64,000 nucleotides of DNA. Origin: Cohaesibacter marisflavi. GTDB taxonomy: Bacteria; Pseudomonadota; Alphaproteobacteria; Rhizobiales; Cohaesibacteraceae. The stretch covers positions 1 to 64,000 of the forward strand of contig NZ_FOVR01000013.1 of the NCBI RefSeq assembly GCF_900115225.1, written 5' to 3'. The translations under genes were made by a program, and so were the position numbers. Positions within the stretch are counted from its first letter, which is position 1. Each line of letters starts with the position of its first letter. Shown one piece after another: positions 15,686 to 22,807 of the stretch. The notes under the pieces are model-generated. The model saw only the letters and a list, made by a program, of their open reading frames with translations, was not told where the DNA came from and ran no database searches.

Positions 15686-17101
15686 ATGGTTTTAAAGTCA
15701 TATATTTCATCATTTATTGTTTCCTGTCTTTTCTTGATGCTATCAAACACAGGATTTGCAGCGTCTCCCGGTAGCTGCTCTGTTGGCCCCCAAGTCATGC
15801 GGGATGGCGAAAGCGCGATTTTCTTCAAGGTGCCTAGCTTGCATGAAGGTGGTTCTTGCTCTCAATATGCGTTGGAACGCACATGCCGAAATGGGCGTAT
15901 GTCTCCGGGGCGAGAATATCGCTATGGAAGCTGTACTGTTCTTGAGCGTTTCACTGGTGTCAATCTCAATGAATTTCCCAGACAAATGGAAAATCGTGCC
16001 ACGAAGCGATTTGATGCCCCTCTCTTCCGTCGCGCTGGGGTGGAAACCTATCGAGGGACGATGGAGGTGCTTAGATATCGTAAGCTCTTTCTTTCAGGCG
16101 AGATGAAGCCGAGGCAGAGGATAGAGAATAAGTGGGCATCCTTTATTGCGGCATCCAGAGAACATGGGAAAAGAGCCATTCTGAGCCTTGAGTGGAGTTT
16201 TAAGCACGCCGATATGGCTCCTCCTTTGCCCGGATCTCAAGAAGAAAGGGATCTGTTTGCGTTTCTTGATACCCATGTTCTTGATATTCTTGCTCCATCA
16301 GCGAGCATTATTACAAGTGGCAATGAACCTTTTGTCGATACCAAAAAAGAAGACTGGCGGTTTAATCCACGCTATGGCGGGATACCCATGGTCGAGTTTT
16401 ACAAAAGGGTCACCCAACATGTTCACGCCTATCTGGTTCGCAAAGGATTGCGAGATCAGGTGGCGCTGTATATGGGATCATTTACGCAGCTTTATTCTCG
16501 TAAAATGCAGGATCAGTCTGCCACGCGTGCTTTGTTCGCTTATGCCGATGCCGCCCCTTTTGTGGATGGGGTGGACTTGCATACGCATGTAACGCGGCTT
16601 GAGCAAATTGAAAGTGCTTTGGCATATGCGCGCTACCAAACGGCAAAACCCATTATCGTGACCGAATATACCTATGTTTGGAAAAAGAGACGGGCGATTG
16701 AAAGCGATGATCGACTGGGTGCGGCTTTTGCTGGGCGTTGGGGCTATGATCCATTTTTGCCGATCCACGACTATCTGGTCTGCTATGTATTTCAGCGCGG
16801 GAATGGCTGCCAGTTTGACACCAAGATTTCCAAAGCAGAATGGGATGATTTCTTGGCATCACGCCCCTGGTTCATTGACCATTTCTTGCTTAAGGCTGAC
16901 GATATTTTCCGAAAGTATGACGTACATGGAGCGACTTATGGTTTTATGCAGAGGCGGCCTAGAACACGTCAATTACAGAGAAATAAAGCTCCCTGGTATC
17001 TCGGTTTCCTCTTTTCACCAGCTTCTCTGGGATATGAACGTGATGGTTTTCCGCTACCGAACTATCAGGTGCTGGATGATTTTATAAGTTTGCAGCGTTG
17101 A
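15686..17101 (+). CDS. Secreted glycoside hydrolase-like protein (clan GH-A-like barrel)
   Basis: This 471-residue exported protein has a signal peptide (residues 1-26, ending GFAAS) and a short Cys-rich N-terminal module (Cys31, 58, 67, 83). A putative TIM barrel runs from about residue 88 to the C-terminus. SGNEPF (Asn213-Glu214) resembles the Asn-Glu acid/base pair of clan GH-A, and VTEYTYVW (Glu327) resembles the nucleophile on strand 7. FVDGVDLHTH is barrel-like too. I cannot assign a CAZy family. ATG 15686 is used; a TTG lies four codons upstream. It heads the galactofuranose/sulfotransferase block, so a role in trimming or remodelling that glycan is inferred. Confidence 0.65.
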   Translation: MVLKSYISSFIVSCLFLMLSNTGFAASPGSCSVGPQVMRDGESAIFFKVPSLHEGGSCSQYALERTCRNGRMSPGREYRYGSCTVLERFTGVNLNEFPRQMENRATKRFDAPLFRRAGVETYRGTMEVLRYRKLFLSGEMKPRQRIENKWASFIAASREHGKRAILSLEWSFKHADMAPPLPGSQEERDLFAFLDTHVLDILAPSASIITSGNEPFVDTKKEDWRFNPRYGGIPMVEFYKRVTQHVHAYLVRKGLRDQVALYMGSFTQLYSRKMQDQSATRALFAYADAAPFVDGVDLHTHVTRLEQIESALAYARYQTAKPIIVTEYTYVWKKRRAIESDDRLGAAFAGRWGYDPFLPIHDYLVCYVFQRGNGCQFDTKISKAEWDDFLASRPWFIDHFLLKADDIFRKYDVHGATYGFMQRRPRTRQLQRNKAPWYLGFLFSPASLGYERDGFPLPNYQVLDDFISLQR

Positions 17102-17316
17102 CCATAGTTTGGGCACAAATTGGCTTTTACAACTCGTTTGCATGCGTCGGTTGCATTTGTCTTCAAGAAAATGGCGGATCAATCGGTTTTGCAGCTTCAA
17201 CGATGTACTAATCAAAAACACGGTGATCCAAAGCTTGCATTTCGGGACTAAAATTTGTAGCAGTTTGCGCAATGGTTTTTGATAATTTTGATAAATTTTT
17301 TTGAAAGGTAGTTTGG

Positions 17317-18441
17317 ATGGGATCTGACCTTAGAATTTGCATTGTCGGGGCCGGCTTTTCCGGAGCTGTGATTGCGCGCGAGCTGGCAGATAAAGGCTAT
17401 CGCACCCTTGTGATTGATGAACGCAGCCATTCGGCAGGCAATTGCCATACTGAACGTGATGCAGAAACAGGTGTGATGGTTCATAAATATGGCCCGCATA
17501 TCTTCCATACTGCAGATGAAAAAGTCTGGGCCTATATCAATCGTTTCGGCGAAATGATGCCATATGTCAATCGGGTGAAGGCCACCGTGAAGGGCAAGGT
17601 TTATTCGCTGCCAATCAACCTGCACACCATCAACCAGTTTTTCGGCAAGGCTATGTCGCCGGATGAGGCCAAGGCCTTTATCGTTAGTCAGGCCCGATCA
17701 GACATCGAAGAGCCGCAAAGCTTTGAAGAGCAGGGTATGAAATTTGTCGGAGAGGACCTCTATAAGGCCTTTTTCGATGGCTACACCCGCAAACAGTGGG
17801 GTGTTGAGCCAAGCACCTTGCCGGCATCGATCCTCAAACGCTTGCCCCTGCGCTTCAACTATGATGACAACTATTTCAACCACCCCTATCAGGGCATGCC
17901 CAAGGATGGTTACAGCAAAATCGTAGACGGTATTCTGGCGCACGACAATATCGAGGTTCGGCTTGATTGTTCCTACGAGAGCCTTGAAGAAGACTTTGAT
18001 CACGTCTTCTACACCGGTCCTCTCGATCGCTACTTCGGCTATGATATCGGACGCCTGAGCTATCGTACTCTGGACTTTGAGCCGATCCGCGCAGAAGGCG
18101 ATTTTCAAGGCACAGCCGTGATGAACTATCCCGATCCGGAAGTGCCTTTCACGCGTATTTCCGAGCATAAGCACTTTGCGCCATGGGAAGCGGAGACGTT
18201 TGAAAAGACGATTGCGTTCAAGGAATTCAGCCGTAACTGCGGTGAAAATGATATCCCATATTATCCAATTCGTCGGCTTGATGACAAACAATTGCTCGAA
18301 GCTTACGAGGAACGCGCAGCCAATGAAGACGGTGTGACATTTGTTGGGCGCCTGGGCACCTATCAGTATCTCGATATGGATGTCACTATCGGCCGGGCAT
18401 TGACTGTTGCCGAGGAATTCCTGGCTTCCCGGAAGGCCTAA
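17317..18441 (+). CDS. glf: UDP-galactopyranose mutase
   Basis: Glf converts UDP-galactopyranose to UDP-galactofuranose using reduced FAD. The 374-residue protein has the FAD-binding start [17 protein letters not shown], the second dinucleotide contact [15 protein letters not shown], the conserved YGPHIFHT, the substrate-binding YTRKQWG and [20 protein letters not shown], and the C-terminal [12 protein letters not shown]. The length and all landmark motifs fit bacterial Glf. It is followed after 37 bp by the galactofuranosyltransferase-like gene, the natural consumer of its product. Confidence 0.97.
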
Positions 18442-21471: not shown

Positions 21472-21649
21472 AGCAATCTGAGAGAACCTTCTCTTCAAAA
21501 GAAAATCTTAAGTCTTTTCCTAGAGCGGAACCTTAAGCAATTGATCCTTATTATTTGTGCCCTTGTTGTGCATATAGCTGATTATGAGGCTCAGATCTGG
21601 AATAGCGACTGAATGATGAACCATTAAACTAGTTCAGTAAGAGAATACA

Positions 21650-22807
21650 ATGGCAGGACGTAAGCTATATCTCCATATCGGTTCACACAAGACCGGAACC
21701 ACATCTATCCAATTTGCCTTGATGCACAATGCAGAAGCATTGGTAGCCAATGGGCTTCAGTTTTTTTTTCAAAAACAGAATGGATCATGGGATGGATTCC
21801 CGGATCTGCACGATTGGATTGAATATGTTGAGGCGGATCGTGTGGTTCCAAAAGGCGCGAGGCTGTCCAATCTGGCAGGGCTGGTTTCAAGTCTCTCTCA
21901 ATATGAACAGGACATCGTTGTTTCTTCGGAGAATTTCTCTTTTTTCTTTGAAAAGAAACATATTGAGGAACTGCATAAGGCATTGTCGAAGATTTTTGAT
22001 GAAATCGAAGTGATCTGCTATTTGCGACGACAGGACCAACATATCATTTCTCATGCCCAGGAAGGGTCTAAAACATCACGACACGCGGAATATGACCTGT
22101 GGGGTAACGACATAGCTTCGTTGCCTGCCTATGACAAGCGGTTTGATTATTATCTTGATTATAATAAGCGCATTGGCATGTGGATGGATGTTATGGGTGA
22201 TGATGCGGTCACTGTACGCTGTTTTGATCAATCCCGCCTTTTGAAAGGTGACACAATTGCGGACTTCTTTGCGCTTTTAGGGATTGAAAACTACCAACCC
22301 GGGGCATGGCGCAATGTGGGCAAGACCAGCACTCAAGCCAAGCTAGGCCATCTTCTCATTGGATCTGGCGCAGATAACCAGGCCAAACTATTTTCTTTGA
22401 TAGATTCTCTTGAGTTGCCGAAGCGCAAAATGGAACCGAGCAGAGCAGAGGCTGAAGATTTCTACAATCACTATAGAGAAGGCAATGCCGCTCTAGCCAC
22501 TCGTCTAAAAGAATGCGAATTCCCTGAGTTCTTTTCGTCTGACTTTTCCGAGTATCCAGAACAGTCGACAGATGTCTGGAATAAAGACGAAATCGGCGAA
22601 ATTTTCGCGGCCGTTTTCAGAGTGTTAGGAAGCAATTTTTTTGACTTCACTCCTAGGGATCTATTGCAAGCAGCCGCGCATAGTCAAAGAAAAGGCGATA
22701 TAGATGCTGGTATCCGTTTTCTGAAGATGGCTCAAAAAATCAGACCTGATGGTCCACATATTGCTAAGCGGCTTAAGGAGCTTAGAGATTTGAAGCAGCG
22801 TGATTGA
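21650..22807 (+). CDS. PAPS-dependent sulfotransferase-like protein with C-terminal TPR-like tail
   Basis: This 385-residue paralogue of the preceding gene has the PAPS loop LHIGSHKTGTTSIQ (Lys14 to Thr17) and a 3'-phosphate site ICYLRRQDQHIISHAQ (Arg126, Arg127, Ser134). The last 45 residues (AAHSQRKGDIDAGIRFLKMA and onward) look like one tetratricopeptide helix pair, which the first sulfotransferase lacks. It is cytoplasmic by prediction. Two sulfotransferases side by side after a galactofuranosyltransferase suggest sulfation at two positions or of two acceptors. Confidence 0.8.
   Translation: MAGRKLYLHIGSHKTGTTSIQFALMHNAEALVANGLQFFFQKQNGSWDGFPDLHDWIEYVEADRVVPKGARLSNLAGLVSSLSQYEQDIVVSSENFSFFFEKKHIEELHKALSKIFDEIEVICYLRRQDQHIISHAQEGSKTSRHAEYDLWGNDIASLPAYDKRFDYYLDYNKRIGMWMDVMGDDAVTVRCFDQSRLLKGDTIADFFALLGIENYQPGAWRNVGKTSTQAKLGHLLIGSGADNQAKLFSLIDSLELPKRKMEPSRAEAEDFYNHYREGNAALATRLKECEFPEFFSSDFSEYPEQSTDVWNKDEIGEIFAAVFRVLGSNFFDFTPRDLLQAAAHSQRKGDIDAGIRFLKMAQKIRPDGPHIAKRLKELRDLKQRD

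What the first reader, a model, noticed from the sequence alone, without database searches (positions are those of the whole stretch)
15686..22807. Predicted pathway for a sulfated galactofuranose-containing surface glycan
Five consecutive plus-strand genes encode a secreted clan GH-A-like protein, UDP-galactopyranose mutase, a GlfT2-like galactofuranosyltransferase and two PAPS-type sulfotransferases. Glf followed by GlfT2-like is known from mycobacterial arabinogalactan. Joining it to two sulfotransferases in an alphaproteobacterium is unusual and suggests a sulfated galactofuranan or a sulfated capping sugar. No polymerase, flippase or exporter is adjacent, so export must use distant genes or another acceptor.
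Basis: partly seen in the sequence, partly recalled or inferred. Interest (0 to 1): 0.78.

Follow-up and report, generated by a model that had tools for sequence, protein, structure and literature searches.

The report
Mobile sulfated galactofuranose surface-glycan cassette
A small, exchangeable gene cassette beside a bacterial tRNA gene looks able to make a sulfated chain of the rare sugar galactofuranose for the cell surface, and related gene sets sit on plasmids of other bacteria, often beside capsule export genes.

Summary
The five genes are real and in the stated order. Glf is certain (TIGR00031 above cut-off). The GT is GlfT2-like (4fix, E 8e-16; DDD and DD motifs). The sulfotransferases pass no Pfam cut-off but carry PAPS-loop motifs, and a 28-row profile reaches a solved sulfotransferase (E 6e-6). 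The secreted GH-A-like protein has motif support only.

The cassette fills a site between tRNA-Leu and a conserved gene; that gap ranges from 0.07 to 73 kb in 17 of 18 genomes of the genus, so it is island cargo. glf-glfT2-ST2 is kept in 4 of 4 GlfT2-bearing genomes of the genus (own included); ST1 and the GH-A-like gene in 2 of 4.

It is not unique among Alphaproteobacteria: of 26 GlfT2-like loci examined, 18 have a sulfotransferase nearby (17 by profile or similarity) and 12 KpsM/T. The missing exporter may be a KpsMT-OPX-KpsS/C-type capsule system next to PAPS genes elsewhere in this genome, resembling sulfated-capsule Cobetia.

Best reading: a Galf polymer sulfated in the cytoplasm and exported in trans as a capsule-type glycan. 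Chemistry, acceptor and export link are inferred. New variant of a known kind.

The parts
15433..15518 (+). tRNA-Leu (TAA), left edge of the variable site
   Evidence: ARAGORN; variable gap between it and the right-flank gene in the genus
15686..17101 (+). A: secreted GH-A-like protein (longer TTG ORF from 15674); signal peptide by eye; NEP and a second invariant Glu
   Evidence: no Pfam, NCBIfam or PDB relative; in the even class sample only the own genome, 1 of 387; also in G002; distant homologues in 4 plasmid records
17317..18441 (+). glf, UDP-galactopyranose mutase
   Evidence: TIGR00031 above cut-off; PF03275; solved Glf
18479..20350 (+). GlfT2-like galactofuranosyltransferase (GT2) with DDD 271-273, GGWW 353-356, DD 377-378
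20473..21471 (+). ST1, PAPS-type sulfotransferase-like (HIGTYKTGTSS; RRQDKFLES)
   Evidence: of the three other GlfT2-bearing genomes of the genus kept in G002 only
21650..22807 (+). ST2, PAPS-type sulfotransferase-like (HIGSHKTGTTS; RRQDQHIIS)
   Evidence: kept next to GlfT2, or one gene on, in 4 of 4
22827..23102 (-). right-flank 91-aa gene, the fixed edge of the variable site
   Evidence: match in 18 of 18 genomes of the genus

Best explanation
The cassette supplies the specific part of a sulfated, galactofuranose-containing surface polysaccharide and borrows the general parts from the host. (1) Glf turns UDP-galactopyranose into UDP-galactofuranose. (2) The GlfT2-like enzyme adds Galf residues, probably as a polymer, to a cytoplasmic lipid-linked primer. 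(3) ST2, with ST1 in some strains, moves sulfate from PAPS onto the chain; PAPS comes from the host CysD and CysNC, and PAP is cleared by a CysQ-like phosphatase. (4) The chain leaves by the host KpsM/KpsT capsule-type exporter with its partners. (5) The secreted GH-A-like protein (a GH43 protein in congener G003) trims or releases the glycan outside the inner membrane. The cassette is cargo of a variable site at tRNA-Leu, so strains differ in this layer. Shown by sequence: step 1, the enzyme classes of 2 and 3, presence of PAPS and capsule-type genes in the genome, conservation, the variable site. Inferred: that one product carries Galf and sulfate, the acceptor, the use of this exporter, and step 5.
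For: Glf and GlfT2 assignments. ST family: K14 in 27 of 28 rows and G11, Q21, E94, R126, S134 in 28 of 28; profile to solved sulfotransferase 3rnl at E 6e-6. glf-glfT2-ST2 in 4 of 4 GlfT2-bearing genomes of the genus, 60-98% protein identity in the other three. Of 26 GlfT2-like loci examined: glf near in 18, ST near in 18 (17 without the annotation-only Acetobacter locus), ST as next gene in 15, KpsM and/or KpsT near in 12 (my tally). Sphingobium: KpsM, KpsT, glf and a divergent GlfT2-like gene in a row, the closer GlfT2-like gene 2.8-6.2 kb further on. Own genome: ABC2_membrane, ABC_tran, SLBB/Poly_export and two Capsule_synth proteins, a CysD-type protein (PF01507) at the contig end, two APS kinase matches at the ends of contig C22 with a CysQ-like (PF00459) gene between. 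KpsM 98-100% identical in G002 and G003. Precedent for kps genes, PAPS genes and sulfotransferases in a structurally solved sulfated capsule: Cobetia marina (PMC11766843, passages).
Against: No product has been isolated. The exporter is not linked to the cassette, and the resident locus seems to have its own GT-like and ST-like genes, so it may make another polymer. In G014 the best KpsM match is 31% identical. Eight of 26 GlfT2-like loci show no ST: Sphingobium (3), Pseudovibrio, Pleomorphomonas, Rhizobium and G403, G192; the L009 and L011 contigs are short. The KpsE-like protein is below the Wzz cut-off (21.8 against 25.5 bits). ST1 and ST2 are below every Pfam cut-off. D of the RRxD motif is present in only 20 of 28 family rows (both window STs have it). 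Both structure predictions were unusable. Other acceptors are not excluded.
Confidence: 0.5

Rival explanations
1. The cassette does not make a free-standing polymer. It adds short, sulfated Galf side branches or caps to an existing capsule or lipopolysaccharide, as a seroconversion module.
For: No exporter or initiating transferase among the five genes; a resident capsule-type locus with GT-like and ST-like genes near it; variable-site position; ST-like genes also lie beside phage-like genes elsewhere in the genome (phage label by eye).
Against: The characterised GlfT2-like enzymes named in PMC12269835 (section 9 read) polymerise Galf; in Sphingobium and in the Roseobacter-type plasmids opened, the GlfT2-like gene sits by capsule export genes; polymerase motifs are intact.
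Confidence: 0.27
2. The Galf polymer is a lipopolysaccharide O-chain, as in Kingella galactan, and the sulfotransferases modify it.
For: Kingella PamB/PamC galactan is on LPS (PMC12269835, passages and section 9).
Against: No Wzy_C-family match in this genome; only two ABC2_membrane matches, one of them the KpsM. Both are single-family searches and can miss divergent ligases or exporters.
Confidence: 0.12
3. The sulfotransferases act on something other than the Galf glycan (a lipid or the resident capsule), and the neighbourhood is only shared cargo.
For: ST-profile matches also lie at other loci of the genus; ST1 is in only 2 of 4 cassettes.
Against: ST2 stays with GlfT2 in 4 of 4 genomes of the genus, one of them at a different locus, and an ST is the next gene to GlfT2 in 15 of 26 loci.
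Confidence: 0.11

Closest known systems
Kingella kingae pamABC galactan (PamB Glf, PamC GlfT2-like), PMC12269835 (passages and discussion read)
   Same: Glf plus a GT2 GlfT2-like galactan synthase in a Gram-negative; the DXD and DD motifs essential there are conserved here
   Different: No sulfotransferase is mentioned in the parts read; the product is on LPS; PamA (GT111) has no counterpart among the five genes
Cobetia marina KMM 1449 sulfated capsule cluster, PMC11766843 (passages read)
   Same: kpsETMD, kpsSC, PAPS synthesis with cysQ, and sulfotransferases together: like the capsule and PAPS genes of this genome
   Different: dTDP-Rha and GDP-Man pathways; the term mutase is not found at a word start in the text; GT and ST genes in the cluster, not on a separate island
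Actinoplanes missouriensis wps-1 cluster, PMC13390465 (passages read)
   Same: A glycoside hydrolase, two sulfotransferases and a GT2 grouped with galactofuranosyltransferases
   Different: Predicted Wzx/Wzy-type actinomycete cluster; sulfation only predicted in the passages
Mycobacterial arabinogalactan GlfT1/GlfT2
   Same: UDP-Galf use and the GlfT2 family
   Different: Decaprenyl-linked cell-wall core without sulfotransferases (recalled); only 60-65 bits similarity
Polysaccharide plasmids of Leisingera, Ruegeria and Phaeobacter
   Same: glf, GlfT2-like, ST-like and KpsM and/or KpsT-like genes together on 9 of the 9 such plasmids opened (L099 is cut by the record end and shows KpsT only)
   Different: Plasmid, not island; GlfT2 34-37% identical; exporter adjacent. 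PMC10090131 (passages read) calls such plasmids biofilm plasmids and names the Leisingera sp. M527 one; the passages name no sulfated Galf glycan

Membership tests
UDP-galactopyranose mutase | NCBIfam equivalog TIGR00031 over cut-off; PF03275 | tested here: met
   317.2 against 303.75 bits; 259.6 against 26.3 bits
GlfT2-type galactofuranosyltransferase | Sequence similarity to solved GlfT2 over N-terminal and catalytic parts | tested here: met
   phmmer E 8e-16 to 4fix, residues 77-471
GlfT2-type galactofuranosyltransferase | Pfam Glft2_N gathering score | tested here: not met
   17.4 against 26.1 bits; so GlfT2-like, not filed as GlfT2 itself
GlfT2-type galactofuranosyltransferase | DXD and downstream DD catalytic motifs | tested here: met
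   DDD 271-273, DD 377-378; roles from passages of PMC7168186 and PMC12269835
GlfT2-type galactofuranosyltransferase | Processive Galf transfer from UDP-Galf | not testable with these tools
   needs an enzyme assay
PAPS-dependent sulfotransferase | Pfam sulfotransferase gathering score for ST1 or ST2 | tested here: not met
   ST1 15.3 against 22.8 bits, ST2 none; a relative in G003 just passes PF00685, 22.1 against 22
PAPS-dependent sulfotransferase | 5'-phosphosulfate loop and 3'-phosphate motif (motif roles recalled) | tested here: met
   both window STs have HIG..KTGT and RRQD....S; in the 28-row family K14 is in 27, R126 and S134 in 28, D129 in 20
PAPS-dependent sulfotransferase | Profile similarity to a solved sulfotransferase | tested here: met
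   28-row profile to 3rnl E 6e-6; the 7-row profile gave only E 0.049 or worse
Clan GH-A glycoside hydrolase (protein A) | TIM-barrel fold with acid/base Asn-Glu and nucleophile Glu (recalled) | tested here: inconclusive
   NEP and E331 invariant in 5 rows, A included; fold prediction unusable
ABC-dependent (group 2/3-type) capsule system in the same genome | KpsM, KpsT, outer-membrane exporter and KpsS/KpsC-type proteins | tested here: met
   PF01061, PF00005, Poly_export/SLBB and two Capsule_synth proteins over cut-off
ABC-dependent (group 2/3-type) capsule system in the same genome | KpsE-type partner | tested here: inconclusive
   gene present in the right place, Wzz 21.8 against 25.5 bits
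ABC-dependent (group 2/3-type) capsule system in the same genome | Exports the product of this cassette | not testable with these tools
   inferred from linkage in relatives

The most novel reading that the evidence does not exclude
GlfT2-like plus sulfotransferase genes form a portable sulfogalactofuranan specificity cassette of Alphaproteobacteria. It is swapped between tRNA islands and plasmids, its sulfotransferases and secreted hydrolase are exchanged piecewise, and it plugs into a resident KpsMT/PAPS chassis in trans, so that a strain changes its capsule without replacing the capsule locus, perhaps under phage pressure.
Probability: 0.25. Interest if true: 0.72.

Novelty: new variant of a known kind. 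Interest (0 to 1): 0.52.

Why it matters
Sulfated bacterial polysaccharides and Galf homopolymers are each known. I saw no report of one polymer made by a GlfT2-like enzyme with dedicated sulfotransferases in my searches, which cover open-licence papers only, show capped lists for five of the nine (25, 45, 83, 100, 117), and were followed by passages from seven papers. If true, it gives a function to a protein family that the plasmid records opened here mostly call hypothetical, ties tRNA islands and plasmids to a specific surface chemistry, and gives a direct test: Galf and sulfate in one capsule.

Tried and rejected
Structure prediction of A (single sequence) and of ST2 (two window rows) gave mean pLDDT 33.7 and 34.3, so no fold search was run. 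The A-family profile against PDB gave one chance-level hit. ST1 and ST2 against phage records: no match in either search, so known phage cargo is not supported there. No att-like repeat was found inside or just right of the cassette in the window (best 19 of 30 in 15541-24500), so the integration unit is not defined. Promoter- and terminator-like sites are no more than shuffles give (10 against 11.1; 8 against 8.3). Recent mycobacterial origin was set aside: the nearest relatives found are alphaproteobacterial.

Control for the ST link: genera with a GlfT2-like locus and an ST nearby are 9 of 14 (8 of 14 by profile or similarity alone; Acetobacter rests on its annotation, with no profile match; Paracoccus on a 181-aa fragment), against 2 of 16 genera among 20 glf-bearing class loci (one of the two, L048, is weak). 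Fisher p 0.0068 loose, 0.019 strict, 0.0043 strict without L048; with the G403/G192 genus left out of the controls 0.0078 and 0.021. Earlier runs without the G403/G192 genus among the GlfT2 genera gave 0.0027, 0.016 and 0.0033. I entered these counts by hand. Stretches differ in length (6-26 kb; 28 kb for the window), rows are related, and the ST profile was built from this genus and G031. The tree (22 rows, not all loci) forces at least two changes of the ST label, with long branches and Acetobacter counted as without ST.

Dropped rows: KpsT matches of about 40-52 bits in the window, L013, L090 and L103, taken as other ABC ATPases. In one search the query named KpsT_own comes in fact from Sphingobium L007.

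Fetched but not analysed: L073 beyond a gene list, L079-L085 and most of L017-L019. L020-L032 were used only for flank genes and tRNAs, apart from a gene list of L021. Plasmid hits not opened: 10 of the 25 records. Phaeobacter inhibens hits of ST2 (61 records) were not opened.
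Full report
OBSERVATION. The five ORFs are as described. Gaps are 215 bp (A-glf), 37 bp (glf-glfT2), 122 bp and 178 bp, so glf-glfT2 is the tight pair. G+C of the genes is 41.8-50.8%, against 52.6% for the window and 54.5% and 53.1% for two flank stretches.

ENZYMES. Glf is secure. The GT2 protein matches solved GlfT2-type galactofuranosyltransferases and keeps DDD and DD, motifs whose importance is described in PMC12269835 and PMC7168186 (passages read). Its Pfam Glft2_N score is below cut-off, so I call it GlfT2-like. 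ST1 and ST2 are 18-24% identical to each other, depending on the alignment. Neither reaches a Pfam cut-off; the other ST of G003 just passes PF00685. Both have HIG..KTGT and RRQD....S. In a 28-row family K14 is in 27 rows, G11, Q21, E94, R126 and S134 in all 28, but D129 in only 20. Scanned one by one, few rows match a Pfam sulfotransferase family at E 0.1 (3, 2 and 1 rows for three families). The 28-row profile finds sulfotransferase 3rnl at E 6e-6. Protein A has an export signal by eye, and NEP and a second Glu invariant in five rows. Homologues lie within about 8 kb of a sulfatase and a TonB receptor in Catenovulum and by a sulfatase, GH43 and TonB receptor in Bacteroides. This fits a secreted glycosidase, but the fold is unproven.

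SETTING. tRNA-Leu(TAA) at 15433-15518 lies just left. The right-flank gene (22827-23102) and the left gpt-tRNA stretch give matches in 18 of 18 genomes of the genus (for G009 only the tRNA part of the left stretch). From those coordinates the gap between them is about 66 bp (G006), 0.24 kb (G011), 0.8-2.2 kb (G010, G016, G017, G008, G012), 4.4 kb (G014), 7.3 kb (G000, G002) and 28-73 kb (G005, G007, G013, G015, G003, G004, G001); in G009 the two matches are on different contigs. That is 17 of 18 measured. In G003 the cassette lies between the right-flank gene and a 42-base copy of the tRNA 3' end and following bases (39 of 42 match), next to phage-like genes (by eye), and is inverted relative to the window. 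There gene A is replaced by a GH43 protein, and a different ST stands in for ST1. DNA identity between own and G003 is 94-97% in glf-glfT2, 73% in ST2 and about 90% in the right flank, which is mosaic. In G014 the glf-glfT2-ST2 set sits at another locus, followed by two more GTs. GlfT2 is in 4 of 18 and glf in 5 of 18 genomes of the genus. The fifth, G016, has glf near tRNA-Arg with a pyruvyl-transferase gene and no ST-profile match.

DISTRIBUTION. In an even class sample glf is in 21 of 387 genomes, protein A in 1 of 387, the own one, and GlfT2-like at E 1e-15 in 3 of 387, so the set is rare there. Searches from GlfT2 gave 5 loci in genome contigs and 25 plasmid records, of which I opened 15. 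With the own locus and three congeners these are 24 loci; G403 and G192 add two that have neither glf nor ST in the stretch. Tally over 26: glf near in 18; ST near in 18 (17 if the annotation-only Acetobacter locus is left out); ST as next gene in 15; KpsM and/or KpsT near in 12. Without ST: Sphingobium (3 loci), Pseudovibrio, Pleomorphomonas, Rhizobium, G403, G192. Pseudovibrio, Gemmobacter and Paracoccus have a pyruvyl transferase beside the GlfT2-like gene, another way to add negative charge (inference). By genus the ST link is 9 of 14 against 2 of 16 for glf-bearing class loci (p 0.0068 loose, 0.019 strict). On the GlfT2 tree the ST label needs two changes, so the link arose or was lost more than once. 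Two further glf loci without a close GlfT2-like gene, in G031 (L015) and G341 (L040, one of the controls), carry three and two ST-like genes; L015 also has a secreted protein that passes the GH42 cut-off (23.9 against 21 bits).

THE MISSING PARTS. The own genome has a capsule-type locus on contig C11: ABC2_membrane (KpsM), ABC_tran (KpsT), a KpsE-like protein below the Wzz cut-off, a Poly_export/SLBB protein and a Capsule_synth protein, with a second Capsule_synth protein about 14 kb away and a CysD-type protein (PF01507) near the contig end. Contig C22 is bounded by two partial CysNC copies and holds a CysQ-like phosphatase (PF00459), one weakly ST-like gene (PF13469 below cut-off) and two GT-like genes by eye. 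G002 and G003 show the linked arrangement CysD-CysNC ... CysNC-CysD with KpsM beside it, in G003 with an ST-profile gene between. Strong APS kinase matches occur in 17 of 18 genomes (the G013 match is weak). PAPS supply and a candidate exporter are therefore present. The KpsM search rings in 12 of 18 genomes of the genus, but in G014 at only 31% identity. Cobetia marina gives a precedent with a solved sulfated capsule (PMC11766843, passages).

INTERPRETATION. The best fit is a cassette for a sulfated Galf glycan, built in the cytoplasm and exported in trans by the capsule system. The weakest link is that exporter; a side-branch role on the resident capsule is the main rival.

NOVELTY. Each element is known. 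I saw no description of the combination of a GlfT2-like synthase, dedicated sulfotransferases, capsule export and mobile-element carriage in the listings of nine searches or in the passages read; these cover open-licence papers only, and five of the lists were capped.

LIMITS. ORFs outside the window come from simple callers of mine. Gene names said to be by eye come from no family search. Plasmid annotation is as deposited.

Noticed in passing
L067:9300-9862 (G000:C31 end) and L066:8611-10675 (G000:C18 end): ST-like genes lie beside phage-like genes (by eye); an ST1-like gene appears in two pieces at two contig ends, so this genome may carry another phage-linked sulfotransferase set.
   Followed up: partly
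L035:7792-16615 (G016): A glf gene near tRNA-Arg with a DUF707 protein, a GT2-GT61 fusion and a pyruvyl transferase: a second tRNA-linked Galf-type locus, without an ST-profile match.
   Followed up: partly
window 24702-25094: Small exported-looking protein with a 111-base tandem repeat (2.3 copies); G003 has two such genes in a row.
   Followed up: no
window 25600-28654: Sigma factor-like gene, probable anti-sigma gene and a subtilase-like protease in a row near the island (assigned by eye).
   Followed up: no
L069:760-11774 (G004) and L070:2287-17186 (G008): CysD-type and CysNC genes with ST-profile genes a few kb away: other sulfation loci in congeners without a glf match.
   Followed up: partly
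L009:1773-4712: One Pleomorphomonas ORF of 979 aa holds two GlfT2-like copies in tandem; an assembly error is possible.
   Followed up: no
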